DNA of 64,000 nt from Gammaproteobacteria bacterium (GTDB taxonomy: Bacteria; Pseudomonadota; Gammaproteobacteria; UBA6429; Thiohalophilaceae). How positions within the stretch are numbered: position 1 is the first letter of the stretch; each line of letters starts with the position of its first letter. Positions 23,544 to 61,867 of the stretch are shown here, one piece after another. The stretch is from NCBI GenBank assembly GCA_029881995.1, contig JAOULO010000003.1, forward strand, positions 1 to 64,000. Direction: 5' to 3'. The position numbers and the translations under genes are program-made. The notes beneath the pieces are model-generated. The model saw only the letters and a program-made list of their open reading frames with translations. It did no database searches and was not told the origin of the DNA.

Positions 23544-26048
23544 ATGAAACTGACAAGGCGTGAATTTATTAAGAACAATGCCATCGCAGCCACCGCCACG
23601 GCGGCTGGTGTTACTCTACCTGGTATCAAAATTGCCGAAGCCAAAACTGGCAATGAGATTCGTTGGGACAAGGCTCCCTGTCGTTTCTGCGGCACGGGTT
23701 GTAGTGTGCTGGTCGGTACCAAAGATGACAAGGTCGTCGCCACCCAGGGTGACCCAGATGCCCCAGTCAACAAGGGCCTGAACTGTATCAAGGGCTACTT
23801 CCTGTCAAAGATCATGTACGGCCAGGACCGTCTGACCAAGCCCCTGCTGCGAATGAAAGGCGGCAAGTATCACAAGGAAGGAAAGTTCACCGAAGTCAGC
23901 TGGGACAAGGCCTTTGATGTCATGGCCGAACAATGGAAAAAGGCACTGAAGAAAAAGGGCCCAACTTCCGTTGGTATGTTTGGTTCTGGTCAGTGGACGG
24001 TATGGGAAGGTTATGCTGCCTCCAAACTGTTCAAGGCCGGTTTCCGTTCCAACAACATTGACCCCAATGCCCGCCACTGTATGGCCTCGGCAGTGGGAGC
24101 CTTCATGCGCGGCTTTGGTTCGGACGAGCCCATGGGTTGTTACGATGACCTGGAACACGCCGATGCCTTCGTACTGTGGGGCGCCAACATGGCCGAGATG
24201 CACCCCATCCTCTGGTCGCGTCTGTCTGACACTCGCCTGACCAAGAAGGGCAGTGAAGTACACGTACTGTCAACCTTTACCCACCGTAGTTTCGACCTGG
24301 CGGACAACGGCATGATCTTCAAGCCACAGACTGACCTGGCGATCCTCAACTACATCGCCAACTACATCATCGAGAACAAGGCCTATAACAAGAAGTTCCT
24401 CGACAAGCATGTCAACTTCACCAAGACCCCGACGGATATTGGTTATGGTCTGCGCCCTGAACACCCGCTGGAAAAGAAAGCGACGGGCAAGGGCGGTAAG
24501 CTGTCCAAGATCAGCTTTGAGGAATATGCCAAGTCAGTGTCAAAGTACACGCTTGATTACACCTCAGAACTGAGTGGTGTACCTAAGGATCAGCTAGTGC
24601 GCCTGGCCAAACTCTATGCCAATCCGAAGACAAAAATCTCTTCTTTCTGGACCATGGGCTTTAATCAGCACACCCGTGGTGTCTGGGTAAACGGCCTGTT
24701 GTATAACGTGCATCTGTTGATGGGTAAGATATCTGAGCCAGGTAACAGCCCATTCTCACTGACTGGTCAGCCTTCGGCCTGTGGTACCGCCCGTGAAGTG
24801 GGTACCTTCGCCCATCGTCTGCCTGCTGACCTGGTGGTAAAAAATGCTGACCATCGCAAGTTTGCGGAGAAGATCTGGAAACTGCCTGACGGTACCATCC
24901 CTGGTAAGCCCGGCTTCCATGCTGTGTTACAGAACCGCATGCTGAAAGACGGCAAACTGAATGCCTACTGGGTCATGTGTAATAACAACATGCAGGCCGC
25001 GCCTAACATGAATGAGGAAGGCTATCCCGGTTATCGTAACCCGGAAAACTTCATCGTAGTCTCTGACCCCTACCCAACCGTCACTGCCATGGCCGCTGAC
25101 CTGATTCTACCGACTGCCATGTGGGTGGAAAAAGAAGGGGCCTATGGTAATGCCGAGCGTCGTACCCAGTTCTGGCGTCAGCAGGTATCGGCACCGGGCG
25201 AGGCCAAATCTGACCTCTGGCAGCTGATGGAATTCTCCAAACGCTTCAAGGTGGAAGAAGTCTGGCCGGCAGATCTGATTGCCAAGATGCCTCAGTACAA
25301 GGGCAAGACCCTCTACGACGTGCTGTACCGTAACGGTCAGGTGGACAAGTACAAGAAAACAACAGTTAAAGACTCGAAAGGAAATCGTTATCAGAATGAT
25401 GAGATGAAAGACTTTGGCTTCTATGTACAGAAAGGTCTCTATGAAGAATACCGTATATTCGGCCTGAAGGGTCCGAAGAAGGGCCATGAACTGGCTAGCT
25501 TCGATCAATACCACAAAACGCGTGGCCTGCGCTGGCCGGTCATCAATGGCAAGGAGACCCTGTGGCGTTATCGTGAAGGTTATGACCCACTGGTGAAAAA
25601 AGGTGCTGGCGTCGAGTTCTACGGCAAAAAAGACGGCAAGGCCAACATCATCTTTGCCCCGTATGAGCCAGCTGCGGAGTCACCAGATAAAGAATACGAT
25701 CTGTGGCTCTCCACTGGTCGTGTACTGGAACACTGGCACTCCGGTTCCATGACCCGTCGTGTTCCGGAGCTGTACAAGGCCTATCCCGATGCACTGGTCT
25801 ATATACATCCGAAAGACGCCAAGAAACGTGGCCTGCGCCGTGGCCAGACCGCGAAGATCATGAGCCGTCGAGGTGAGATCACCTGCACCGTAGAGACCAA
25901 GGGTCGTAACCGTGTCCCTGAAGGGCTGGTTTACATCCCCTGGTTCGATGCCGGCCGCCTGGTCAACAAACTGACCCTGGATGCCACCGACCCATTGTCA
26001 AAAGAAACGGACTTCAAGAAATGTGCGGTGAAGGTCAAAAAAGCCTAA
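23544..26048 (+). CDS. napA: NapA, periplasmic nitrate reductase catalytic subunit
   Basis: An 834-residue molybdoenzyme that reduces nitrate to nitrite in the periplasm using a Mo-bis-MGD cofactor. It has a Tat signal (TRREFIK), a [4Fe-4S] site (CRFCGTGC with a later cysteine in KGLNCIKG), and the probable Mo-ligand cysteine in [11 protein letters not shown]-terminal molydopterin dinucleotide-binding domain includes [10 protein letters not shown]. Length is standard. AGGAGG precedes the ATG. Confidence 0.98.
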
Positions 26049-47539: not shown

Positions 47540-49966
47540 CTATTTCTTTTCATTACGCCCGTATTGATTGAGCCGTAGAGCATTCAAAACCACCAAAAGC
47601 GAACTGGCTGACATGCCAATGGCAGCCATCCAGGGGGCAATATAGCCTGCCGCAGCCAGGGGCAGGGCCACCAGATTATAGCCGATGGCCCAGCCAAGAT
47701 TCTGCCGAACGATTAATCTGGCCTTTGTCGCTACTTTTAAGGCCTCGGAGAGATGAGTAAGCTGGCCTGATAATAACACCATATCCGCACTGGCCTGGGC
47801 CAGCTGGGTGCCACTGCCCATGGCAACAGAGACCTCGGCCCCGGCCAGTACCGGGGCATCGTTGACTCCATCACCGACCATGCTGACCACTGCCCCCTGA
47901 GACTGAAGGGCCTTAATCGCGGCCAATTTCCCCTCTGGAGACAAGCCTGATTGATAGGTATCGATACCCAGCTCAACTGCGACCCGCTTAACCACTGCCG
48001 GTTGGTCTCCACTCAGGATGGCGAGCTTTAGCCCCGCCTGTTTAAGCTGTCGAACTGCTTCTACCGCATCTGGACGCAGGGCATCGGATAACTGAAATTC
48101 AGCCAGGGGCTTACCCTCGGCCGTGGCCAGCACAGCATGGCTGTGGGCATGATCCAATTCATGGGTATATTCACTTCCCTGCAGGGCATAGGCAGTGCGG
48201 CCAATTCGGTAGGCCACGCCATTTACCGTTCCGCTGATACCCTGCCCAGGGGTAGCAACAATATCACTGACCGGCTGTGGTTTCTCAACCTGTGCTGCCA
48301 GTAGGCGACCCACCGGGTGCTCGGAGACCTGTTCCAGGGCCGCAGCAATCATCAGGCACTGTTGTTCATCCAGCTCAGTAAAGGTTTCCACTTTGGCCAG
48401 TGTCAATTGGCCGGTCGTCAGGGTACCAGTCTTATCAAATAGCATATGGCTGGTCTGTGCCAGGGTCTCCATGGCATGGCCACGGGTCGTAAGTACCCCG
48501 AGCCGGGTCAAACTTCCCGTGGCTGCGGTCATGGCGGCCGGGGTGGCGAGAGAGAGGGCACAGGGACAGGTGACCACCAGCACCGACAGGACAATCCAGA
48601 AGGCCTGATCAGGGTTGTATAGATACCAGTAACTGCCTACCCCAAGGGCAACCAGTAATAAGGCCCCCACAAAATATCCCGCTACCTTGTCAGCCAGCAG
48701 AGCAATAGCCGGTTTTTCTGATTGAGCGCGATCTAGCAGGCGCCGAATAGCAGCCAGCACGGTTTCCTCACCAATCTTCTCGACACTAATTTCCAGCGGG
48801 CTCTCCACATTAACAGTGCCGGCTGTTACCCCTGCCCCCACAAGCTTGGCCACAGGCAGACTTTCCCCTGTCAGTAAAGACTCATCCACACTGCTCTGAC
48901 CGCTCAACACGCGACCATCGGCCGGGATGCTATCACCGGGGCGAACACGAATACGATCCCCATGCTGAAGATCCGTTACCGGAATCACTTCTTCACCATC
49001 CGCTGTTAAACGGGTGGCCATGGCGGGTAATAATTTAACCAGTTCTTCCGCTGCCTGTCCGGCTCGTTGCCTTGCACCCATTTCCAGGAACCTGCCACTT
49101 AGCAGGAAAAAGGTAAACATGGTGACTGAATCAAAATAGACCTCACCACTGTTAGTCACCGTGGCATAAATACTGGCCAGAAAGGCTCCGCCAATAGCCA
49201 ATGAGACAGGCACATCCATACCCAGGCGCTTACGTTTTAAATCACCCAGCGCGGAAGTAAAAAAGGGTCTGGCCGAATACAGGATGACAGGTAGTGCGAT
49301 AAGCAGGCTAATCCAGCGAAAGAACTGCTTCATGCTCTCTTTCATGCCTTCGGCTTCACCGGCGTATAGAGCCACCGCCAACATCATCACCTGCATAGCA
49401 CCAAAACCGGCCACGGCAAGCCGCTTTAAGGCCTGGCCACGTTCTTTCTTATAGATTTGTTCCTGACGACCGGGATCAAAGGGATGGGCCACATAACCAA
49501 TGGCGGTGATCTCTTTTAAAATATCACTCAAATGGATCTGACTGTTATCCCATTTAAGCTGGGCACGATGAGTTGCATAGTTCACCGAAAAGTCGATGAC
49601 CCCAGGCAGGCCACCCACATGTCGTTCATTCAACCAGACACAGGCCGCACAGACAATACCTTCAAGAATGAGTGCCGCCTGTTTGATTTCACTGTCATCC
49701 CCGGTAACAAAACTGCGTTGCAGTTCAGGGCGATCGTAGAGTGTCAGTTCATCAAGAATTTCGGGGACTGTCGTTGTGGGTGTGGTTGAATTCTGGGTAC
49801 GGTGTTTATAAAAATCGGTCAGGCCACCTTCAACAATGGCGCTTGCAACTGCCTCACAACCAGGGCAACACATCTCACGATCTTCACCCAGGATCTCCAC
49901 ATGGTAGTGACTGCCCTTTGGCACCGGCAGGCCACAGTGAAAACAGCTGTGATTGGTTTCAGTCAT
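47540..49966 (-). CDS. ccoI: CcoI, copper-transporting P1B-type ATPase for cbb3 oxidase
   Basis: An 808-residue P-type ATPase. An N-terminal cysteine-rich segment (CFHCGLPV and CPGCEAVA) and a metal-binding domain (CAACVWL) precede eight membrane helices. The ion-path motif is CPCALSLA, the phosphorylation site DKTGTLT and the hinge [11 protein letters not shown]. It supplies copper for the CuB site of cbb3 oxidase (FixI/CcoI group) rather than general resistance, as the flanking ccoGHS genes indicate. Confidence 0.95.
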
Positions 49967-50096
49967 CTAAATAATATTAATTTATTTAACCACGAGGTAC
50001 ACGGGGAATAACCAGATATAAAAGAAACAAGTCGAAAAAGATTGTTAGATATCTTCCTTAAATTAAAGATACCTCGAATTCCCCATGGCCAATCTT

Positions 50097-50903
50097 TCAC
50101 TTGCCAATATTTGTTCTGGCACGAATCTCATGTAGAGACTCTCCCTGTTTGATATTTAGAATCAGCTCCCACTGTCCAGGGACCGTCATGGTTAATGCTA
50201 CCTGATAATATCCGGGCCTGCCCTCCTGCATCGTAAAGTCCTGATCCAGTTTACTATCAGCCGGGCGCATAAACTGGCCAGTAACATTTGCCTTACTGAT
50301 GGCTTTACCATCTTTGTCTGTCACATGGATCTGAAACTGGGTCTCCTTATCCACAAGCGGGTCGACAGCCCAACCCAGACGTACCTGCCAGTTACGTTCT
50401 TTTTGTTCGCGACGTTGTTCTATGTAGCGATTAAACAGTTCTTCCTTTTCGCGAAAATCGTGACTGACCGTACCAGGGAAAAATGAACTGACCTTGCCAC
50501 CGCTTCTTGGCGCAGGTAAAAACTTTAAGGCCACCTCTTTATGTAAGCCCTTCTGTGCTACCACAATAAGGATCGCATCAACGGCAACAATAAACATAAA
50601 GAAACCGATGATAGCTGCCGGTCCCCAGTGAAACCAGTGACCACTGCTGGCATCATGGGTAGCCCGTTGGGAAAAGATAATTCCCAACGCATAAACTGTG
50701 ATCATATAAATGGCCAGGTGCACTGCAAACACATCGGCACCTGGCCAAAATACGATTGCAACAGGCACAAAAATACCCAGCACCAATAATGCCATTAGGC
50801 CTGCCAGAGCCTTGGGCTCAACTCTCAGAACCTTCAGGGCCAGCAGGAAAACGATGACGATGCTCAGAGCCCCTCCCAACAATGTATAAACCAGTGATGC
50901 CAT
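50097..50903 (-). CDS. ccoH: CcoH/FixH-type assembly protein with extra N-terminal membrane domain
   Basis: A 268-residue protein. The C-terminal half is FixH-like: a membrane helix near 97-118, then WQVRLGWAVDPLVDKETQF and a beta domain ending GQWELILNI. The N-terminal 90 residues add about three further transmembrane helices (6-26, 34-54, 58-78) not found in standard FixH, which is about 150-170 residues. It lies between ccoG and ccoI, its canonical place. Confidence 0.85.
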   Translation of the reverse strand: MASLVYTLLGGALSIVIVFLLALKVLRVEPKALAGLMALLVLGIFVPVAIVFWPGADVFAVHLAIYMITVYALGIIFSQRATHDASSGHWFHWGPAAIIGFFMFIVAVDAILIVVAQKGLHKEVALKFLPAPRSGGKVSSFFPGTVSHDFREKEELFNRYIEQRREQKERNWQVRLGWAVDPLVDKETQFQIHVTDKDGKAISKANVTGQFMRPADSKLDQDFTMQEGRPGYYQVALTMTVPGQWELILNIKQGESLHEIRARTNIGK

Positions 50904-50924
50904 AACTATTTACCTACTAATAAA

Positions 50925-52322
50925 TCAGGGCTGACTAAAGACAGCCGTATGTTTGATTGTGGGGATATCAGTAGAGTTTAGACTCTCTACGACAAAGTTA
51001 AATTTAAACTGTTTATCCTCATCGCTTATCTTTGTGTGTTTGACAGCGGCCTGCAAGTTGACACTTTCACCGGGTTTTAGAGTGAATTTAGTAAAATGAC
51101 CCACATCCAGTTCTGCGTGACGAATCTTTTCCATGCTTAATTTATATGACTGGCCATGTGCACTTTTGTTGACAATTTTTAATTCATACCGATTCTGTAT
51201 ACTTCCATCCGACAACCTCACATATAAAGGCTGGCGTATCTTATTCACAGTAAGTTCTGTCACGGTTCGAGAAACAATACTCCATGCCAGTAATCCTGTC
51301 ACAAGGGTAATTGATATGGCATAACCCAGGTTCTTGGGCTTGTACCAGCGACGTTTTGAACCATGCAGCTCGTGCTCTGATGAATAGCGGATAAGGCCCC
51401 GAGGATATTTTATCGAATCCATGATCGTGTCACAGGCGTCGATACACAGGGCACAGGAAATACACTGGTACTGCATACCATTACGAATATCGATACCTAC
51501 AGGGCAAACCTGGACACAATAACCACAGTCGATACAATCACCGTGCTTTTTATTTTGACGTTCTTCCTGTTTCAATAAACCTTTAGCCGGTTTAATACGA
51601 CCATTGTCTCGTTCACCACGTGCCTCATCATAGGCTACGATCAGGGTATCTTGATCAAACATCACCCCCTGAAAACGAGAATAAGGGCACATATACGTGC
51701 ATACCTGCTCACGTGCCAGTCCCGCCATCACAAAAGTGGTCGTCATTAAAAAGAAGGTTGTGGCATAAGCCGGAAAAGGGGCATTGCCGGTAAAAAAATC
51801 TTTTGTTAACTGAAGAGAATCACCCCAATAGGCAGTAAAGGCAAGACCAGTAAAAAAGGCCACCATCAACCAGAGTAGTTTGGTTAAAGTGAGTTTAATA
51901 ATCTTCTCTGCTGTATTTGGACTATTGAGGAGTTTGATACGGGCATTGCGTTCACCCTGTACCAGGTGTTCGATCATTACATAGACATCTGTCCATAGAG
52001 TCTGAAAACAGAAATAGCCACAGAACACCCTACCGGCAACCCCTGTCACAAAGAACAGCAGAAAGGCGGCAATGATCAAAAAACCCGCCAGCCAGAAAAT
52101 ATCCTGCGGATAAACAGTCAGATCAAATAAATAAAATTTGCGACCAACGATGTCGAACAGCACAGCCTGCTCTGGCCCATTGTCCCGTTCCCAACGAAGC
52201 CAGGGCAACATGAAATAGACCGCATAAGCAAAAAACAGAATGCCATGCTTAAGCGTACGAAACTGACCCTCCACCGAACGGGGTATAACTGGAATACGTT
52301 TCTGGATCAGATTATCAGTCAT
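50925..52322 (-). CDS. ccoG: CcoG, cbb3 oxidase accessory iron-sulfur protein
   Basis: A 465-residue polytopic protein with about five transmembrane helices, CGYFCFQTLWTD, CTYMCPYSRFQ and two [4Fe-4S] sites CIDCGYCVQVCP and CISCALCIDAC. A C-terminal immunoglobulin-like periplasmic domain completes it. CcoG (FixG/RdxA) is implicated in copper reduction for oxidase maturation. It starts after a hairpin and a palindromic repeat that separate it from ccoP. Confidence 0.95.
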   Translation of the reverse strand: MTDNLIQKRIPVIPRSVEGQFRTLKHGILFFAYAVYFMLPWLRWERDNGPEQAVLFDIVGRKFYLFDLTVYPQDIFWLAGFLIIAAFLLFFVTGVAGRVFCGYFCFQTLWTDVYVMIEHLVQGERNARIKLLNSPNTAEKIIKLTLTKLLWLMVAFFTGLAFTAYWGDSLQLTKDFFTGNAPFPAYATTFFLMTTTFVMAGLAREQVCTYMCPYSRFQGVMFDQDTLIVAYDEARGERDNGRIKPAKGLLKQEERQNKKHGDCIDCGYCVQVCPVGIDIRNGMQYQCISCALCIDACDTIMDSIKYPRGLIRYSSEHELHGSKRRWYKPKNLGYAISITLVTGLLAWSIVSRTVTELTVNKIRQPLYVRLSDGSIQNRYELKIVNKSAHGQSYKLSMEKIRHAELDVGHFTKFTLKPGESVNLQAAVKHTKISDEDKQFKFNFVVESLNSTDIPTIKHTAVFSQP

Positions 52323-52356
52323 GTCTGTGTGTAAATTTCATACTCTTAAATACGGC

Positions 52357-52387
52357 AAAAGGGTATACCTTCTATTAAGGTATACCC
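52357..52387 (-). terminator. Hairpin between ccoP and ccoG
   Basis: On the minus strand GGGTATACCTT, loop AATAG and AAGGTATACCC form an 11-bp perfect stem followed by only TTTT. It may act as a weak terminator or attenuator after ccoNOQP, 34 bp before the ccoG start. Confidence 0.55.
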
Positions 52388-52447
52388 CTGCCAGTAACAA
52401 TGCGTTTGATCAGCGGTTCGGTAATTAACAACCAGACCAGAATAACG

Positions 52448-52558
52448 CCTTCCCCCTTAAAGGGGAGGGTTGGGGTGGGGTGATAAAAATAATTTTCCAG
52501 CTAATTTTATCACCACCCCCTAGCCCCCTCCTGCAAGGAGGGGGAAGGTTAACAAACC
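52448..52558. repeat. Palindromic intergenic element (MITE-like), about 110 bp
   Basis: Left arm CCTTCCCCCTTAAAGGGG, then a GGGTTGGGGTGGGGTGATAA segment. The right arm is the imperfect inverse: TTATCACCACCCCCTAGCC then CCTCCTGCAAGGAGGGGGAA. The ends themselves are small hairpins. It resembles palindromic G/C-rich repeats dispersed in many gammaproteobacterial genomes. It carries no ORF and sits in the ccoP-ccoG gap. Confidence 0.75.
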
Positions 52559-52570
52559 TTAAATCCTGAT

Positions 52571-53488
52571 CTACTTACCACCACCCAATTGATGAACATA
52601 GTAAGTCAGCATCTTAATATCAGCATCTGACAAACGTCCCTGCCAGGCTGGCATGTCACGACCGGCTACACCGTTAGTAACAACTGCCTTAACAGCGGCC
52701 TTTTTCTCAGCCAGGGTCTTAGCAGCATTCACATTAGCAATGGTCCAGACTTTATCTGTCAGGTTGGCTGCACCCATGGCGATCTGGCCCGTACCTTCTT
52801 TGGTGTGACAGGCAAAACAACCACCACTACCTTCAAAGATTGCCTTGCCTTTTGCAGCCTTGGCGGCATTGACCTTGGTTCCCGAAAAACTCAGTACGTA
52901 TTCGGCAACATTATCGATTTGTGCTGCACTCAGGCTAGCTTTAAAGCCAGGCATAGATCCTTTACGACCACTGCGGATGGTCTCTTCGATCTTGGCGTAA
53001 GAACCACCCCACAGCCATGCATCATCTGCCAGATTGGGATACATACCCATTACCCCGGCACCACCAGATTGATGACAACCTGCACAATTATCGGCAAACA
53101 ACACTTTTGCAGTTGAGTAGGCAAAGGCACTTTGATCTTTATCTTTGGCGATCTGGCTATAGCTGGCCTTTACAATTTTATCGACGTAAGGCTTTTGCAT
53201 TTCACGCGCTTCCTGCATTTCTTTCATCAGCAGGGAACGGGTGTTCCAATGGGTAGTATGTTCTTTGCCATCGGCTGTTTTATAAGTGATGTCATTCATT
53301 ACACCCTTGGTATAACTTTTGCCTATCGGAAAAGTTGGGAACAATACCCAGTAGATCACAGCAAAAACTACCGTGGCATAAAAACCCCATAGCCACCAGT
53401 TAGGCAATGGGTTGTTAAATTCCTGCAGGTCACCATCCCAGGCGTGACCGGTGGTCTGTACAGTCTGTTGTTTCTTTTCAGTACTCAT
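52571..53488 (-). CDS. ccoP: CcoP, diheme cytochrome c subunit of cbb3 oxidase
   Basis: A 305-residue subunit with the N-terminal GHAWDGDLQEFNNPLPNWW motif, one membrane helix (about 33-52) and two cytochrome c domains with CAGCH and CFACH. It accepts electrons from soluble cytochromes and passes them to CcoO. Its start overlaps the ccoQ stop by 4 bp. Confidence 0.97.
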   Translation of the reverse strand: MSTEKKQQTVQTTGHAWDGDLQEFNNPLPNWWLWGFYATVVFAVIYWVLFPTFPIGKSYTKGVMNDITYKTADGKEHTTHWNTRSLLMKEMQEAREMQKPYVDKIVKASYSQIAKDKDQSAFAYSTAKVLFADNCAGCHQSGGAGVMGMYPNLADDAWLWGGSYAKIEETIRSGRKGSMPGFKASLSAAQIDNVAEYVLSFSGTKVNAAKAAKGKAIFEGSGGCFACHTKEGTGQIAMGAANLTDKVWTIANVNAAKTLAEKKAAVKAVVTNGVAGRDMPAWQGRLSDADIKMLTYYVHQLGGGK

Positions 53489-53685
53489 TTGCTTGCTTCC
53501 TCAGGATGAGTGGACTGCTCGTCCTCATCGGTTAATGGAATATTTTTATACGATTCCAGACGTTCACTTCGGTTTTTGCCGGTATAGACATAAAGAATAA
53601 TGCCGACAAAAGTGATGAAGAACAGCACCAGCACAAAGGGCTTGGTGTTTTCCATACTGGTAAACCATGTGAGCCATTCAATCAT
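53485..53685 (-). CDS. ccoQ: CcoQ, small cbb3 oxidase subunit
   Basis: A 66-residue protein with one transmembrane helix (about 17-35, LVLFFITFVGIILYVYTG) and a polar C-terminal tail. CcoQ stabilises CcoP in the complex. It overlaps ccoP by 4 bp and follows ccoO. Confidence 0.93.
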   Translation of the reverse strand: MIEWLTWFTSMENTKPFVLVLFFITFVGIILYVYTGKNRSERLESYKNIPLTDEDEQSTHPEEASK

Positions 53686-53724
53686 AGGTGCTGTCTTCCT
53701 TCGTTTCGCTATTAACGGCCCAGC

Positions 53725-54474
53725 TTATCTAAAGCGGGTGAAGTGACCGTCTTCAAATTTCTTGAAGTCAACCATTGTGCCTAACACTTGCAAGTAGGCC
53801 ACCATGGCATCCATTTCGGTAATGTCATCTTTATTTCCGTCATAGTTACCACTTTGTGCCTGGGCCAGCAGGTTTTTCTCAGCCTGGTTGATGTCCAGTT
53901 TGTCAGCTACGTCTTTGCCATATCGCTTAACATTAGCCTTGTACTCATCTTCAGTGATGCTGTAAGGCACACCAACCATTTTCAGTGCCTTCAAACGACC
54001 AGCAATATCCTTGTACTCCAGTTTGTTTTTCATCAACCAGGGGTAGTTAGGCATGATGGACTCAGGTACAACCGAACGTGGTGCAATAAGGTGCTGTACG
54101 TGCCACTGGTTAGAATACTTCTTACCAACACGGGCCAGGTCAGGACCGGTACGCTTGGAACCCCACTGGAAGGGATGGTCGAACTGAGATTCGGCCGCCA
54201 GTGAGTAGTGCCCATAACGCAGGGCTTCATCACGGAAGGGGCGGATCATCTGTGAGTGACAGGTATAACAACCTTCACGCTGGTAGAGATCACGACCACG
54301 CAGTTCCAGTGGTGTATAAGGGCGAACAGTGTCCTTGCCTTCCACTTTCACAGTTTCAATAGTGTCATCGATAAAGTACAGCGGTACGATTTCCACCAGA
54401 CCACCGATACTGATGACGATTAATGTCAGAAAGATAAGCCAACCGGCATTCGTTTCTATCGTTTCATGTTTCAT
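53725..54474 (-). CDS. ccoO: CcoO, monoheme cytochrome c subunit of cbb3 oxidase
   Basis: A 249-residue subunit with an N-terminal membrane helix (about 10-32) and one heme site CYTCHSQM. The family stretch [20 protein letters not shown] follows. Heme transfers electrons to the CcoN active site. It lies 19 bp after ccoN. Confidence 0.97.
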
Positions 54475-57418: not shown

Positions 57419-58414
57419 ATGTTAAAGGAATCAAGTTTGTTTAAAAAAATCTTGTTATTTGTCGGCCTGAGTTTGGTTTTAGAAAACTCAGCGCAAGCTG
57501 CTACTAATGAAAACAGTTTTACACCGACGTTGTTGAAAAAACCTATAAAGGAAATTTCACTTGGCAGCTCAACAGATTCAACTGCTTATGCTTCACTCTA
57601 TTCATGCTCGGGGACTTTAGCTGACTGTATGGTAAACATAGCGGATAATACTGCTCTTGCCAGCCTTCTATCAGCTTCAGTAAGCATCTCAGCAGGAACC
57701 TATGATCAAATTAAAATTTCCAGCTGTACGACTGAGGGAGGTTATACCGCTCAAGTACAAGGCCAGGTAACATTAGGAAGTACAACGTACTACACTGCCT
57801 CTGGTGCAGACCCGCTTACCACCAGCGTGGGAAGTCTTGGACCAGTCACCCTGTCATACTCTGGTTGTGTGAGCACATATAAATTACCAACTCCAGTTGT
57901 TGTTACTGCTGGTAGCACTGTTCATGTCAGCCTATACATCAACCTGGTAAATATAACCTGGGCAAAGCTTGGCACAAAAACCATCCCTAGTGGCTGTACA
58001 GAAAATACAGGTAAAACTATGTCAGTCTGCTCTGCATATCCTGACGTTGTTCCTTATGTTGGGACAACCACACCAACAGTCGAAATCTATCACCTTAAAG
58101 CCAATGGGGGTGGTGCTGGAACTGAGGGCGGCCAAATTCTGTTACTGTTTGATGCTAGCGATAATATCCTTGGTGGATTTAGTCGTAGGCTATTCAGTCA
58201 AAACTCTGTTGCGCTTAGCCAGTTTGATACACCACTCAAGACATTTACAAAAAATGGTGATGGTATCACCTATACTATTGAAAACTATGGAAGCAGCACG
58301 ACAACTTACTATTGGCGCACTACAGATTTTCAACGCACCACAGGAACAACCAGTAACATAACCTTTACACTAGGTAGTGGTGGGACTGTCAGTTACGACA
58401 GCACTAAACAATAA
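57419..58414 (+). CDS. Secreted protein, unknown function
   Basis: A 331-residue protein with a Sec signal peptide (KILLFVGLSLVLENSAQAA) and a Thr/Ser/Gly-rich, beta-type mature region. It contains six or more cysteines in pairs (SCSGTLADC, SSCTTEGG, SGCVST, SGCTENTGK), likely disulfides in the periplasm or outside the cell. AAGGAG precedes the ATG. I recognise no domain. Composition is similar in style to the 809-residue lipoprotein at 18.2 kb but I see no alignable segment. Confidence 0.75.
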   Translation: MLKESSLFKKILLFVGLSLVLENSAQAATNENSFTPTLLKKPIKEISLGSSTDSTAYASLYSCSGTLADCMVNIADNTALASLLSASVSISAGTYDQIKISSCTTEGGYTAQVQGQVTLGSTTYYTASGADPLTTSVGSLGPVTLSYSGCVSTYKLPTPVVVTAGSTVHVSLYINLVNITWAKLGTKTIPSGCTENTGKTMSVCSAYPDVVPYVGTTTPTVEIYHLKANGGGAGTEGGQILLLFDASDNILGGFSRRLFSQNSVALSQFDTPLKTFTKNGDGITYTIENYGSSTTTYYWRTTDFQRTTGTTSNITFTLGSGGTVSYDSTKQ

Positions 58415-58470: not shown

Positions 58471-58749
58471 TTCATCCCAGCAAGTTGTAAAATACTATCA
58501 CTAACCCTTCATTGGCTCTTAAAACACGATTTAGGTGGTGCAGGATAAGCAACAGTTTCAACAATTAATTAATAAGACTGCGAATATTGCCTCATGCCAT
58601 ATTCGCACCCCTCCGCAAAAATAGCTCATATTTTTCTTGACCTGGAGTCAACTCCAGATAATACAATTCCTGCCGATATATCCACACATGAATTGAACCA
58701 AACACCTGTCTGAGGTTCAAACCCGTAGTCATTAAAGCAGGATAACTAC
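58471..58749. other. Regulatory gap before the metal operon
   Basis: No gene is visible. Besides the MerR-type promoter (58637-58667) it contains an 8-bp inverted repeat GCGAATAT/ATATTCGC at 58580-58606 with an 11-base loop, of unknown meaning. Confidence 0.5.
58637..58667 (+). promoter_or_regulatory. MerR-family regulated promoter of the metal operon
   Basis: -35 TTGACC (58637-58642) and -10 TACAAT (58662-58667) are separated by 19 bp, longer than the optimal 17. The spacer holds a perfect dyad CTGGAGT-CA-ACTCCAG (58642-58657). This overlong spacer with central dyad is the signature of promoters distorted and activated by MerR-family metal sensors. The dyad resembles CueR/PbrR-type operators. 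Confidence 0.85.
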
Positions 58750-59040
58750 ATGAAAAAATTGATATTTATATTTCTTCTGGCCCTGGGTGGCCCACTAAGT
58801 GCTGTTGCTGACTCCAGTTATGTCATCAAAATTGATGGTATGACCTGTAAATTCTGTGCCCATAACGTCAAGAAACACCTCAAAAAACTCGATGGTGTGG
58901 AAGAGGTCAAGGTCGACCAGGACAAGGGACTGGCTTCCCTGACGGTCATTCCAGGAACTCAGCTCACAGATGCAAAACTCAAGGCTGTAATAGCCAAGGC
59001 CGGTTATAACTATCGTGGTATCCAGACACGGCCGGAATAA
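58750..59040 (+). CDS. Periplasmic MerP-like heavy-metal-associated protein
   Basis: A 96-residue protein with a signal peptide (cleavage near AVADS) and one HMA domain carrying the metal-binding GMTCKFC motif. Fold and length resemble MerP, which captures Hg(II) in the periplasm, but other thiophilic metals are possible. It is the first gene of the operon, 82 bp after the predicted -10. Confidence 0.88.
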   Translation: MKKLIFIFLLALGGPLSAVADSSYVIKIDGMTCKFCAHNVKKHLKKLDGVEEVKVDQDKGLASLTVIPGTQLTDAKLKAVIAKAGYNYRGIQTRPE

Positions 59041-59044
59041 AGAC

Positions 59045-59440
59045 ATGCCTCTACAGGAAACACAGAAACGTAACAACCTCGCCTGGCTGGCTCTGTTTAC
59101 TTCCATGACTACCCTGGTCTGTTGCGCCCTTCCCATTCTGCTAGTCAGCCTGGGTCTGGGTGCCACCTATGCGGCCATGACGGACAGTGCACCCTGGTTG
59201 ATCACCCTAGGTAAATACAAGGCAGTCACCTTTTTTGTTGCAGGTATTTTAATCTCAGGGGCGGCATGGTTTACCTGGCGACCCGGTCGTGCCTGTCCAA
59301 CAGACCCGATTCTGGCAGCTCAATGCCAGCGAGTTGATAAATGGAACAAGCGAGCACTGGTACTGGCAATTTCTGCCTGGCTTATCGGCTTCTTTGCCGC
59401 TTATCTCGCCTTTCCGCTTCAGGTATGGCTGGAAAATTAG
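59045..59440 (+). CDS. MerT-like inner-membrane metal transporter
   Basis: A 131-residue protein with three transmembrane helices. The first contains a vicinal Cys pair (TLVCCALPILLV), as in MerT, and the loop after the second holds further cysteines (GRACPTDP and AAQCQR), also as in MerT. It would take the metal from the MerP-like protein across the membrane. The start at 59045 is 4 bp after the previous stop. The longer reading from 59015 overlaps the upstream gene. Confidence 0.8.
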   Translation: MPLQETQKRNNLAWLALFTSMTTLVCCALPILLVSLGLGATYAAMTDSAPWLITLGKYKAVTFFVAGILISGAAWFTWRPGRACPTDPILAAQCQRVDKWNKRALVLAISAWLIGFFAAYLAFPLQVWLEN

Positions 59441-59450
59441 GAGTATTCAA

Positions 59451-59708
59451 ATGGTAAAAGTAGAAGTTTTTTCTTCTCCCGGCTGTGGTAAATGTGGCCA
59501 TGCTAAGGCCGTATTACAAAAGATTGCAGAAGAAATGGGGACCGATCGCATTCAGTGGCGAGAAGTCAATGTTCTGGATGATCTAGATTATGCCGTCAGT
59601 ATCGGCGTGTTATCCACACCTGCCATTGCCATCGATGGTGAACTGACCTTTGCCAGTCTGCCATCGGCAAAAAAACTGCGCCAGGAACTGGAAACAAGGC
59701 TGGGTTAA
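59451..59708 (+). CDS. Small thioredoxin/glutaredoxin-like protein with CGKC site
   Basis: An 85-residue thioredoxin-fold protein: VEVFSSPGCGKCGHAKAVLQ holds the redox CxxC, and the cis-Pro loop is VLSTPAIAID. There is no signal peptide, so it is cytoplasmic. It resembles the 'small disulfide-redox' proteins found beside CcdA-like permeases. AGGAG lies just upstream, and the next gene starts 3 bp later. It probably reduces or carries metal-bound thiols. Confidence 0.88.
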   Translation: MVKVEVFSSPGCGKCGHAKAVLQKIAEEMGTDRIQWREVNVLDDLDYAVSIGVLSTPAIAIDGELTFASLPSAKKLRQELETRLG

Positions 59709-59711
59709 ATA

Positions 59712-61016
59712 ATGGAAAGCACTCTTTATCTTATTATCTTCGTACTTGGGCTACTGGCCTTTTTTGAACCCTGTACGATTGCAACCCACACCCTGTTTAT
59801 TGCCCGTACCCATAAGCAAACTAACAATCAGATATTCTCCAGATTACTGGTAGTCTGGCTGGCAAGGAGTCTGTTATTTTGCAGCATTCTTGCCCTTGCT
59901 GTAATTTTCATACCGACACCAGTGTGGCCGACGAGTACTTTCAGCGTGATACTCGTTATGATGGCCTTATTGTATCTGGTATCTCGCTTTACCTATATAC
60001 CAGTTCCTCACCTGAATTTTTATCGGCTACTACCGTTTACCGATGCCTTACCAGATCCAGTCAAGCTTGGTCTTTCATTACCGGCCTGTACCATCCCTTT
60101 GTTTGTTGTCATTACTGGTCTAAACCTGCAGTACGATAATTTAATCATTGCCCTAATCAGCGGTTTAACATTTGCGACAGGCTTTTCTGCACCGCTAGTA
60201 ATTGTCACCCTAAAAGGTATTAATGAAAATGTGCAGGATTTCCTGCAACATGCTGCGAAAGGAAGCCCCTACTTAACTGCGATATTATTAATTGGTGGCG
60301 CTCTTTATATACTACTACCCGGAATTGATCTCAGTAGTAAAGCACTTAAAATCAGTCTGGAACATGCAAGCTGGACAGGGATTGGTCTTTCCTTTCTGGC
60401 CGGCTTTGTTTTCAGCTTTAATCCTGTTTCATTCGCCTCTATTCCAGTGATGCTGGCTTATGTAACCAAGGCCCACGAAGAACGCCGCGCCATTTTGATG
60501 GGAAGCGCCTTTGTGCTTGGAATGATTACCACCCATGTTGTGCTAGGAGTTGCTGCGGCAATAAGTGGGGATGGAATCAAATCTGTCCTGGGGCGTGAGT
60601 GGAGTCTGTTATTGGGGCCTGTATTAATTATTCTTGGCCTCATCTGGACAGGTTGGTTGAAGATTCGTCTACCCTGGTTTGGTATGCGCGCCAGAAAGGT
60701 CAGTGGAATCGGTGGGGCCTTTTTACTGGCGATCCCTTTTTCAGTAGCGGTGTGCCCCTTCTGCACCCCCGCCCTGCTGGTCACACTCACCGCCAGTGCC
60801 GCAATAGGATCTATTTCATTTGGTTTTGCATTGCTACTGGCCTTTGCATTAGGCCGCAGCATCCCCATTATCCTGGGTGCCTGGAGCATGGGCTGGCTGG
60901 AATCACTTAAGATTTTATCCCGCTACCAGAAAATTTTTGAAATCATTGCCGGTATTGTTTTGATACTGGTAGGGCTATATTTACTAAACGAATATTTCTT
61001 TATCATCGAAATATAA
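59712..61016 (+). CDS. Double-length CcdA/DsbD-like membrane protein
   Basis: A 434-residue membrane protein with about twelve transmembrane helices in two CcdA-like halves. Half 1 (about 1-210) has FFEPCTIATHTL and LPACTIPLFVVI, each with a Pro-linked cysteine, as in CcdA. Half 2 (about 230-430) has FSFNPVSFASIP, where the expected Cys is Asn, and VAVCPFCTPALLVTL with a CPFC site. CcdA-family proteins move reducing equivalents across the membrane. Context suggests supplying thiols for metal handling or transporting a thiol-metal adduct. Confidence 0.8.
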   Translation: MESTLYLIIFVLGLLAFFEPCTIATHTLFIARTHKQTNNQIFSRLLVVWLARSLLFCSILALAVIFIPTPVWPTSTFSVILVMMALLYLVSRFTYIPVPHLNFYRLLPFTDALPDPVKLGLSLPACTIPLFVVITGLNLQYDNLIIALISGLTFATGFSAPLVIVTLKGINENVQDFLQHAAKGSPYLTAILLIGGALYILLPGIDLSSKALKISLEHASWTGIGLSFLAGFVFSFNPVSFASIPVMLAYVTKAHEERRAILMGSAFVLGMITTHVVLGVAAAISGDGIKSVLGREWSLLLGPVLIILGLIWTGWLKIRLPWFGMRARKVSGIGGAFLLAIPFSVAVCPFCTPALLVTLTASAAIGSISFGFALLLAFALGRSIPIILGAWSMGWLESLKILSRYQKIFEIIAGIVLILVGLYLLNEYFFIIEI

Positions 61017-61028
61017 AAGGAGTTAAGT

Positions 61029-61457
61029 ATGGGCGCATGTTGTAATACCCAAACCTCTCAGGGCACAGCACCAAAGGCAGTTTGCCCTGCAAACGGCAAA
61101 ACATACAAACGGGTCTCCAGAGAAACCATTCTCCATCACCTCAATAAACCCTGGCAGGTCGATTTACCTGAGCAGGAATATTATTTTTGCGATAGTAAGG
61201 ATTGTGATGTTGTTTACTATGGTGAAGACCAGCGTATGTTCACTCAGCTCGATTTAAGAACCACGGTCGGTCAAAAATCAGAAAATCTGTTGCGTCCCGT
61301 TTGCTATTGTTTTGATGTAACACAGATTGACCTGGAAACACGGGACACAGCAAAAGACTTTATTATTCAACAAACCATGAATGGAACCTGCCACTGCCAG
61401 ATACGCAATCCATCTGGCCGCTGTTGTCTAAAGGACATTCCTAAAGAAACACCATGA
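61029..61457 (+). CDS. CopZ/BFD-type iron-sulfur metallochaperone-like protein
   Basis: A 142-residue cytoplasmic protein with 13 cysteines. The N-terminus MGACCNTQ is followed by VCPANGKTYKRVSRETI, a zinc-finger-like part (YYFCDSKDCDVVYYGEDQ) and a BFD-like [2Fe-2S] part with VCYCFDVT and CHCQIRNPSGRCC. The arrangement resembles the N-terminal domain of Archaeoglobus CopZ. It lacks the HMA domain of full CopZ. AGGAG is upstream, and the stop overlaps the merR-like start. Confidence 0.8.
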   Translation: MGACCNTQTSQGTAPKAVCPANGKTYKRVSRETILHHLNKPWQVDLPEQEYYFCDSKDCDVVYYGEDQRMFTQLDLRTTVGQKSENLLRPVCYCFDVTQIDLETRDTAKDFIIQQTMNGTCHCQIRNPSGRCCLKDIPKETP

Positions 61458-61867
61458 AGACCCAGCCTATTTATAAGATTGGGGATGTCGCGAATCTAAG
61501 CGGTCTGAGTGTTGATACTCTTCGTTATTATGAAAAGATTGGACTGTTAAAAAATATCTTTCGTAATGAGAGTGGCATCAGGCTCTATAGTGATAAAGAT
61601 ATTTCCCAGCTAAATTTTATCAAACGTGCCCAACGCATGAATTTTAGCCTGGAAGAGATTCGTGATCTATTAGAAATGCGCACCAATCCACAAAAGGCCT
61701 GTGTTGAGGTACGTGAACTAACAGCGAATAAACTGCAGGAAGTTGAAGCCAGTCTGGATGAACTCAATACCTTGCGTAATGAACTGCAATTACTACTCAA
61801 TCTCTGTCAGGCATCAGAGAACGGTTGTCCAATTATCGAAAACCTGGATGATATTAAACATGATTAA
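61454..61867 (+). CDS. MerR-family heavy-metal-responsive regulator
   Basis: A 137-residue MerR-family protein with N-terminal winged HTH (YKIGDVANLSGLSVDTLRYY) and a dimerisation helix. Three cysteines, C83, C118 and C125, are candidate metal ligands. The spacing 35 then 7 fits, from memory, the Cd(II)-responsive CadR pattern (77-112-119). MerR has 82-117-126 and ZntR a wider last gap. The target is probably the 19-bp-spacer promoter at 58637. The gene is last in the operon, giving autoregulation. It overlaps the previous gene by 4 bp. Confidence 0.92.
   Translation: MKTQPIYKIGDVANLSGLSVDTLRYYEKIGLLKNIFRNESGIRLYSDKDISQLNFIKRAQRMNFSLEEIRDLLEMRTNPQKACVEVRELTANKLQEVEASLDELNTLRNELQLLLNLCQASENGCPIIENLDDIKHD

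What the first reader, a model, noticed from the sequence alone, without database searches (positions are those of the whole stretch)
58637..61867. Mer-like thiophilic-metal operon without a reductase, coupled to a redox membrane module
Six tightly spaced genes encode a MerP-like HMA protein, a MerT-like transporter, a CGKC thioredoxin, a double CcdA-like membrane protein, a CopZ/BFD-like Fe-S metallochaperone and a MerR-family sensor. They share one MerR-type promoter. No MerA, ATPase or efflux pump is present, so the logic must differ from classic mercury resistance. Inferred model: metal enters or is trapped by MerP/MerT, is passed to CopZ-like cysteines, and the thioredoxin/CcdA pair either supplies reducing power or exports a thiol-metal species. 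I do not know a characterised system with this gene set.
Basis: partly seen in the sequence, partly recalled or inferred. Interest (0 to 1): 0.75.

Follow-up and report, generated by a model that had tools for sequence, protein, structure and literature searches.

The report
MerA-less mercury-type operon with redox relay
A bacterial six-gene operon carries mercury-uptake-like genes, a metal sensor, an iron-sulfur metal-binding protein and a membrane thiol-redox pair but no mercury reductase; relatives show that its parts recur in or beside mercury-resistance operons, which suggests a testable way for cells to handle mercury or similar metals without the usual enzyme.

Summary
The six genes, their order and the MerR-type promoter are real. 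The operon is mercury-type but built from two separable modules. (1) Thioredoxin, a 434-aa membrane protein and a MerR regulator form a unit conserved in relatives. Genomes with the membrane protein are enriched for mercuric reductase MerA (20/27 versus 52/342); an arsenic-pump control is not enriched. In 9 of 34 relative loci merA lies within about 4 kb. (2) The CopZ-like Zn/[2Fe-2S] protein recurs beside Mer-type genes: directly behind MerA in four genomes, in MerA-less operons in others (0 of 15 such genomes, all of one family, have MerA over cut-off), and fused to MerB or to MerT-HMA. The window's genome has no MerA over cut-off. The operator core is that of E. coli zntA, not of mer, so the inducing metal (Hg, Cd, Zn or Pb) is open. 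Best reading: metal-inducible uptake and sequestration with dedicated thiol-reducing power. Whether the CopZ-like protein binds or also reduces Hg(II), and what the membrane protein carries, is unproven. New variant of a known kind.

The parts
58637..58667 (+). MerR-type promoter: -35 TTGACC, 19-bp spacer, -10 TACAAT, with operator dyad CTGGAGT-CA-ACTCCAG (58642-58657)
   Evidence: scan; shuffle control; only perfect copy of the dyad in the genome. Same core as the E. coli zntA operator.
58750..59040 (+). HMA protein, MerP-like, with an apparent signal peptide and GMTCKFC metal site (96 aa)
   Evidence: PF00403 46.6 bits, cut-off 24.8. Below the NCBIfam MerP cut-off (35.5 vs 92.55). Signal peptide judged by eye.
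59045..59440 (+). Divergent MerT-type membrane protein (131 aa), CC in the first hydrophobic segment and a C-x9-C loop
   Evidence: PF02411 16.6 bits, below cut-off 32.9. hhalign to a MerT alignment: probability 92%, E 5e-7, CC aligned to CC.
59451..59708 (+). Small thioredoxin, CGKC (85 aa), no signal peptide visible
   Evidence: PF13192 43.1 bits, cut-off 24.8. C12, K14 and C15 invariant in 31 sequences.
59712..61016 (+). 434-aa membrane protein: N-half with FEPCTIATHTLF (C21) and LPACT (C126); C-half CcdA/DsbD-like with CPFC (C348, C351) and FNPV where CcdA has its first cysteine
   Evidence: PF02683 53.3 bits on residues 223-426; match to CcdA 5vkv E 1.9e-4. The four cysteines are invariant in 31 sequences and in alignment A1.
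61029..61457 (+). CopZ-type Zn/[2Fe-2S] protein with N-terminal CC (142 aa)
   Evidence: NF047645 161.8 bits, cut-off 100; zf_CopZ 58.5 bits; aligned to A. fulgidus CopZ 2hu9, E 3.2e-14, CYC and NPSGRCC conserved. Cofactors inferred.
61454..61867 (+). MerR-family metal regulator, C83/C118/C125 (137 aa)
   Evidence: Best NCBIfam matches are ZntR-type PRK09514 (123.9 bits), CueR (116.8), ZntR (109.4) and MerR (106.3), all below cut-off. C83 lies at the CueR Ser77 position (alignment; residue number recalled).

Best explanation
A metal-inducible, mer-type operon for a soft divalent metal, most likely Hg(II) and possibly Cd(II), Pb(II) or Zn(II), that works without MerA. The MerR protein sits on the promoter and turns it on when its three cysteines bind the metal. 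The HMA protein captures the metal in the periplasm and hands it to the MerT-type protein, which carries it inward. The CopZ-type Zn/[2Fe-2S] protein, with its extra CC pair, is the cytoplasmic acceptor in place of MerA. The dedicated thioredoxin and the CcdA-like membrane protein form a thiol-reducing relay that keeps the cysteine pairs of the metal carriers reduced, so that they can bind metal in an oxidising periplasm. Shown here: gene content, operator, family assignments, invariant cysteines, statistical and physical linkage to mer genes, and fusions of CopZ-type domains to MerB and to MerT-HMA. Inferred: the inducing metal, the direction of metal and electron flow, the CopZ-type protein as acceptor, and the HMA protein as client of the relay.
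For: Linkage of the relay to mercury resistance: 20 of 27 genomes with a membrane-protein match (half-length forms and fragments included) have MerA versus 52 of 342 without (Fisher p 1.8e-10; 14/19 versus 58/350 for near-full-length copies; 16/22 versus 44/250 by genus, hand count, p 1.4e-7). The acr3 arsenic pump shows 11/27 versus 20/53. A MerA stretch of 180 aa or more at 46% identity or more lies on 9 of 34 relative loci. Linkage of the CopZ-type protein: 33 of 59 CopZ loci (the window's own included) carry a Mer-type gene within about 1.5 kb, three of them only a MerR-family regulator, against 0 of 15 control loci of the window's genome (MerA-like proteins by which 8 controls were picked not counted). 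It is fused to MerB in both orders and to MerT-HMA. It follows MerA within about 30 bp of the model matches in G575, G605, G373 and G477. Where a MerR-(MerT)-MerF-CopZ operon has no MerA within the 1.5-kb flank, 0 of 15 genomes, all of one family, have MerA over the cut-off. Module-type promoters in 26 of 35 sources, none in shuffles. Thioredoxin and membrane-protein cysteines are invariant.
Against: The operator core is that of E. coli zntA, and the window's regulator scores best with a ZntR-type model, so Zn/Cd/Pb is at least as well supported as Hg for induction. In 28 of 29 homologous module regulators the first sensor cysteine is Arg or Lys, so the module's signal may not be the classical MerR one. 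Genome-wide, CopZ-type genes do not co-occur with MerA (4/29 versus 68/340) and only weakly with MerB (6/29 versus 29/340, p 0.04). 26 of 59 CopZ loci have no mer-type neighbour, and two plasmid copies follow an ArsR-regulated heavy-metal ATPase. In G512 a broken MerA match lies beside the CopZ-type gene (L136). The HMA gene was detected on the module strand in only 16 of 34 relatives, so the HMA protein cannot be the only client of the relay. Many loci are MAG contigs with short ends, and kinship was controlled only by genus.
Confidence: 0.5

Rival explanations
1. Thiol-metal exporter: thioredoxin loads a thiol-bound metal or metalloid onto the membrane protein, which exports it, in the manner proposed for ArsE/ArsG with aromatic arsenicals.
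For: NCBIfam's closest named model for the C-half is the efflux permease ArsG (67 bits), and for the thioredoxin the MTH895/ArsE family comes second (39.5 bits). The C-half lacks the first CcdA cysteine in the relatives and in the stand-alone forms aligned, but keeps CPxC. Stand-alone C-half plus thioredoxin plus MerR lies near metal ATPases, MFS genes or MerT/MerP on the four plasmids opened.
Against: Both matches are far below the curated cut-offs (200 and 62). No arsenic linkage: acr3 11/27 versus 20/53. The only solved-structure match by sequence is the electron carrier CcdA. The N-half keeps two invariant cysteines as expected of a redox carrier.
Confidence: 0.2
2. A zinc/cadmium/lead tolerance operon: the ZntR-like regulator responds to Cd, Zn or Pb, and the mer-like genes handle these metals rather than mercury.
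For: Operator core identical to E. coli zntA. A ZntR-type model gives the regulator's highest score. A thioredoxin/CcdA-like gene pair is induced by Cd, not Zn, in Mesorhizobium metallidurans, and another CcdA gene downstream of CadA is induced by both (PMC3668242, passages read). CDF genes, and RND genes that read as Czc-type by eye, flank several relatives.
Against: MerT-type carriers and MerA linkage point to mercury. Whether the Mesorhizobium pair is homologous to this one was not tested. ZntR also responds to Hg in the literature (recalled).
Confidence: 0.2
3. A copper-handling operon for cytochrome oxidase assembly: CopZ-type chaperone, thioredoxin and CcdA-like protein serve the neighbouring haem-a synthesis and cbb3 oxidase genes.
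For: ORFs that read as ctaA and ctaB (by eye) lie immediately downstream on the other strand, and ccoO/ccoP about 4-6 kb upstream. A. fulgidus CopZ binds copper (recalled).
Against: The regulator has Cys at the CueR Ser77 position, typical of divalent sensors (recalled). The operator is not of the CueR type (recalled). Recurrent neighbours of the relatives include Mer and CDF genes; oxidase genes were not searched for specifically.
Confidence: 0.08

Closest known systems
mer operon (merR-merT-merP-merA type)
   Same: MerR regulator, MerP-like HMA protein and MerT-type carrier in one operon; relatives carry the module beside classical mer genes.
   Different: No MerA in operon or, over cut-off, in genome; MerT and MerP below curated cut-offs; different operator; extra thioredoxin, membrane protein and CopZ-type protein.
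Archaeoglobus fulgidus CopZ N-terminal Zn/[2Fe-2S] domain (PDB 2hu9)
   Same: Same domain by sequence (E 3.2e-14); cysteine motifs CYC and NPSGRCC conserved.
   Different: N-terminal CC lies outside the aligned part; no copper-binding HMA domain fused here; sits in mer-type operons.
CcdA/DsbD membrane electron carriers
   Same: C-half belongs to PF02683 and matches CcdA 5vkv.
   Different: C-half lacks the first CcdA cysteine and has CPxC; fused to an N-half of unassigned family; encoded with metal genes.
ArsEFG (Chen, Zhang and Rosen 2019; seen only as cited in passages of PMC9144182)
   Same: Pairs a small thioredoxin-like protein with a DsbD_TM-type membrane protein (protein types from NCBIfam names and recall).
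   Different: Both proteins here are far below the ArsE/ArsG cut-offs; no ArsF noticed; no arsenic-pump linkage.
Cd-induced thioredoxin/CcdA gene pair of Mesorhizobium metallidurans (PMC3668242, passages)
   Same: Thioredoxin and CcdA-like genes with consecutive locus numbers under metal control.
   Different: Sequence relationship not tested; the authors offer only metal binding or reducing power as speculation, for another CcdA copy.
NCBIfam NF045683 MerT/CopZ fusion-like selenoprotein and the SAO/Tso selenoprotein systems (PMC13188914, passages)
   Same: Join MerT-, CopZ- or DsbD-like parts in putative metal chemistry.
   Different: Selenocysteine systems; the window's proteins match those models far below cut-off.

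Membership tests
Classical mer operon | MerA mercuric reductase | tested here: not met
   No match over 454.45 bits in the own genome (97.3% complete); best 333.4.
Classical mer operon | MerT and MerP above curated cut-offs | tested here: not met
   PF02411 16.6 vs 32.9; TIGR02052 35.5 vs 92.55. Homology to MerT by profile comparison.
Classical mer operon | mer operator with CCGTAC/GTACGG-type arms | tested here: not met
   Operator arms are CTGGAGT/ACTCCAG.
Classical mer operon | MerR regulator over cut-off | tested here: not met
   TIGR02051 106.3 vs 150.85, though three sensor-type cysteines are present.
ZntR-type regulation | zntA-type operator core | tested here: met
ZntR-type regulation | Regulator over the ZntR cut-off | tested here: not met
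   TIGR02043 109.4 vs 167.95; PRK09514 123.9 vs 143.
CopZ_Nterm_CC (NF047645) | Score over cut-off, CC, Zn- and Fe-S-type cysteine motifs | tested here: met
   161.8 vs 100; motifs.
CopZ_Nterm_CC (NF047645) | Binds Zn and a [2Fe-2S] cluster | not testable with these tools
   Inferred from 2hu9.
CcdA/DsbD transmembrane domain | PF02683 match | tested here: met
   C-half 53.3 vs 27.1; N-half no match.
CcdA/DsbD transmembrane domain | Redox cysteine in each of the two CcdA motifs | tested here: not met
   C-half has FNPV in the first motif.
CcdA/DsbD transmembrane domain | N-half has the CcdA fold | tested here: inconclusive
   hhalign N-half to C-half probability 41%; structure comparison of the N-half gives only tied, unspecific rows under Z 8.
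ArsG permease | NF040495 over cut-off | tested here: not met
   67 vs 200.

The most novel reading that the evidence does not exclude
The CopZ-type Zn/[2Fe-2S] protein is a mer-operon component that can replace MerA: it receives Hg(II) from MerT/MerF carriers or from MerB, and either holds it or reduces it to Hg(0) with electrons from its [2Fe-2S] cluster. This would explain mer-type operons, and some MerB-bearing genomes, that have no MerA. In the window a thioredoxin and a membrane relay supply the reducing power.
Probability: 0.25. Interest if true: 0.85.

Novelty: new variant of a known kind. Interest (0 to 1): 0.6.

Why it matters
Christakis et al. 2021 (PMC8261052, passages read) report 906 genomes with MerB but no MerA and ask how they deal with the Hg(II) that MerB releases. 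A CopZ-type Zn/[2Fe-2S] protein that sits behind MerA in some genomes, stands in MerA-less operons in others, and is fused to MerB with the catalytic-type residues kept is a concrete candidate for that role. The thioredoxin/membrane-protein pair is a second candidate component of metal resistance, tied to MerA by co-occurrence and not to the one other metal gene tested (acr3). Both can be tested in laboratory E. coli.

Tried and rejected
Conserved six-gene order: rejected; 1 of 34 relative loci has all six (L002).

Statistical link of CopZ-type genes to MerA across genomes: not found (4/29 versus 68/340). The link rests on adjacency and fusions.

A second operator copy in the genome (C44:41899, 1 mismatch): inside a coding ORF and without TTGAC at the right place, rejected.

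MerA on relative loci: I first counted 11 of 34; on rechecking lengths two were dropped because they are short (L028, 66 aa at a contig end; L034, 74 aa in a broken frame), and L022 because it is 33% identical. L033 supplied the MerA query itself.

RNA families: none at gathering score in the window. The first search with PF11604 served only to identify the own genome.

Structure of the 434-aa protein: low confidence (mean pLDDT 67). The C-half aligns to CcdA 5vkv (Z 7.1, rmsd 4.5, 193 aligned) but tied with unrelated rows. The N-half alone (pLDDT 76.5) gave NorA, an Nqr subunit and others under Z 8; CcdA was not among the 50 rows shown. Not used as evidence.

A CC pair at membrane-protein columns 41-42 (C in 27 and 25 of 31 sequences) is missing in the window. 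I considered that the CopZ-type protein had taken over its role; rejected, since L002 has both.

Literature: no paper on this gene set was noticed in the listings of ten searches of the held library. Of the papers listed I looked into PMC9144182, PMC13188914, PMC8261052, PMC10433974, PMC3668242, PMC9604106, PMC9449456 and PMC9312934, passages only (plus the outline of PMC3668242). Most subscription journals are not held. Haft and Tolstoy 2025 is not held.


Full report
What is there. Six ORFs on the + strand, 58750-61867, with gaps of 3-12 bp and one 4-bp overlap, follow a MerR-type promoter at 58637 (TTGACC, 19-bp spacer, TACAAT) that holds the dyad CTGGAGT-CA-ACTCCAG. The proteins are an HMA protein, a divergent MerT-type protein, a CGKC thioredoxin, a 434-aa membrane protein, a CopZ-type protein and a MerR regulator.

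Two modules, not one. A scan of genome contigs with the membrane protein gave 34 loci, by record title mostly Gammaproteobacteria, with Burkholderiales, Hydrogenophilales and Thiobacillus, and one bin called Phycisphaerales. By tblastn the thioredoxin gene lies just upstream in 32 of 34 (the other two contigs begin inside the membrane-protein gene), a module-type MerR gene follows in 29 of 34, the MerT-type gene is found in 12, an HMA gene on the module strand in 16, and the CopZ-type gene in one, L002. Several contigs are short, so these are lower bounds. Relatives add a metallo-beta-lactamase-fold protein and outer-membrane proteins. The conserved unit is therefore thioredoxin - membrane protein - MerR. 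A shorter form, MerR - thioredoxin - C-half alone, occurs on plasmids; in the four of 12 hit records that I opened (Cupriavidus twice, Afipia, Variovorax) metal ATPases, MFS genes, a GDCCVxC protein or MerT/MerP lie near it.

Cysteines. In 31 sequences C21 (FEPCT), C126 (LPACT), C348 and C351 (CPFC) never vary; the C-half has FNPV where CcdA has its first cysteine. The thioredoxin C12, K14 and C15 never vary in 31 sequences.

Link to mercury. In the same 369 genomes of the class, the membrane protein was found in 27 (half-length forms and fragments included) and MerA over cut-off in 72; both in 20. Fisher p is 1.8e-10, and 1.4e-7 when counted by genus, 16/22 versus 44/250, the 16 counted by hand. 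Restricted to 19 near-full-length copies it is 14 of 19 against 58 of 350. The ACR3 arsenic pump, searched in the 27 and in 53 others, shows 11 and 20 at E 1e-40, no enrichment. In two genomes of the window's own family (G239, G335) MerA lies 0.9 and 2.2 kb from the membrane-protein match; in G001 and G205 5.8 and 3.1 kb. Of the 34 contig loci, nine (L007, L012, L018, L025, L026, L027, L030, L033, L035) carry a MerA stretch of 180 aa or more at 46% identity or more, all within about 4 kb of the module; L033 supplied the query, and two shorter matches and one of 33% identity were dropped. The window's genome has no MerA over cut-off, and neither has that of L002, whose completeness is not told.

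Regulation. By an automated rule, 26 of 35 sources (window region and the 34 loci) hold a module-type promoter, 27 sites in all, while 20 dinucleotide shuffles of the same sequences gave none; the rule does not test position. In the earlier scan most such sites lay shortly upstream of the first module gene, except in L026 and L033 (more than 500 bp upstream of the thioredoxin gene); classical mer operons on several of the same contigs have another operator (CCGTAC- or CTGTAC-type arms, 20-bp spacer). The module operator core equals that of E. coli zntA, read from the K-12 record. The window's regulator has cysteines at 83, 118 and 125. Among 29 homologous module regulators only that of L002 keeps the first, 28 having Arg or Lys there, while all 29 keep the other two; ten classical-type MerR proteins detected on the same loci all have a cysteine at or next to the first position. 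Two further partial module-type matches (L021, L028) also lack it. So the window/L002 pair may sense a metal differently from the rest. The spacing of 35 and 7 resembles CadR (recalled).

The CopZ-type protein. NF047645 matches at E 1e-10 were found in 29 of 369 class genomes (25 over cut-off) and 43 of 398 phylum genomes (39 over cut-off), the latter dominated by one family, f207. Of 59 loci inspected (30 class, 29 phylum, the window included; not all hits were given loci) 33 have a Mer-type gene within about 1.5 kb: 14 of 30 and 19 of 29; in L087, L104 and L106 it is only a MerR-family regulator. Fifteen control loci of the window's genome gave none, apart from the MerA-like proteins by which eight of them were chosen; as they are from one genome this control is modest. 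Arrangements include MerR-MerT-HMA-CopZ (L107, L116), MerT-HMA-CopZ (L091, L094), MerA-MerC-CopZ (L092), MerF-CopZ (L110) and, in f207, MerR-(MerT)-MerF-CopZ. Among the four class genomes with MerT-HMA-CopZ none has MerA over cut-off. Among 15 f207 genomes with such an operon and no MerA in the flank, none has MerA over cut-off, though six have a lower-scoring relative elsewhere and completeness runs from 73 to 99%. In the five of 32 genomes searched that do have MerA over cut-off, it lies just before the CopZ-type gene on the same contig: 20-26 bp between model matches in four, 0.7 kb in G385, where a MerB-like match lies between. Two genes fuse MerB and CopZ-type domains in opposite orders (L103, genome G089 without MerA over cut-off; L105, G337 with MerA); both MerB parts keep the residues aligned with Cys96, Asp99 and Cys159 of MerB (residue numbers recalled). 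A planctomycete plasmid gene called 'Mercuric reductase' is a CopZ-MerT-HMA fusion. Eight of 25 plasmid records with a CopZ-type match were opened: four have a MerR-CopZ pair (Peribacillus, Cytobacillus, Stenotrophomonas, Deinococcus), Methylomonas has MerR - MerT - 'cation transporter' - CopZ-type beside a recombinase and a Tn3 transposase, two follow an ArsR-regulated heavy-metal ATPase, and one is the fusion. An N-terminal CC pair is present in 54 of 66 rows, fragments included and the window counted twice.

Mechanism. Best reading: capture by the HMA protein, entry through the MerT-type carrier, delivery to the CopZ-type protein, with thioredoxin and the membrane protein supplying thiol reducing power. 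Each step of flow is inference. The exporter reading (ArsG-like) remains open because the C-half lacks the first CcdA cysteine. The inducing metal is open because the operator is zntA-like, and published Cd induction of a thioredoxin/CcdA pair in Mesorhizobium (PMC3668242, passages read) fits a wider metal range; sequence relationship to that pair was not tested.

Against the bold reading: CopZ-type genes do not co-occur with MerA and only weakly with MerB, MerB-positive genomes without MerA have them no more often than those with it (3 of 16 versus 3 of 19, hand count), the 15 MerA-less operons are from one family, and 26 of 59 loci have no Mer-type neighbour.

Prior knowledge. In the listings of ten searches of the held library I noticed no description of this gene set or of a CopZ-type protein as a mer component; the passages that I read are named under Tried and rejected. 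Christakis et al. 2021 (PMC8261052, passages read) discuss genomes with MerB but no MerA, suggest low-potential ferredoxins as Hg(II) reductants, and have no occurrence of 'CopZ' in the main text.

Noticed in passing
L103:859-1923 and L105:805-1938: Single genes that join an organomercurial lyase (MerB) domain and a CopZ-type Zn/[2Fe-2S] domain, in opposite orders, in two genomes of different families.
   Followed up: partly
L149:3995-5230 (CP036351.1): Plasmid gene annotated 'Mercuric reductase' has no reductase match in Pfam; it is a CopZ-MerT-HMA fusion.
   Followed up: yes
L010:7076-8005, L010:2982-3812, L010:4559-5464 and like genes: Relatives' operons include a metallo-beta-lactamase-fold protein, apparently secreted, and one or two PF13557 outer-membrane-type proteins of unknown role.
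   Followed up: partly
window 59712-61016, residues 41-42: A CC pair present in most relatives of the membrane protein is missing in the window's copy (I-F).
   Followed up: partly
L084 (NC_015685.1): Afipia carboxidovorans pOC167 carries HMA - metal ATPase - MFS - MerR - thioredoxin - CcdA - MerT - MerP with no merA among the genes listed within about 5 kb (the gene table is incomplete).
   Followed up: no
window 57419-58414: 331-aa apparently secreted protein just upstream of the operon with no Pfam match at E 0.1 or NCBIfam match at E 1e-10.
   Followed up: no
window 47540-54474: cbb3 oxidase genes (ccoO, ccoP) with a heavy-metal P1B ATPase nearby; napA at 23544-26048.
   Followed up: no
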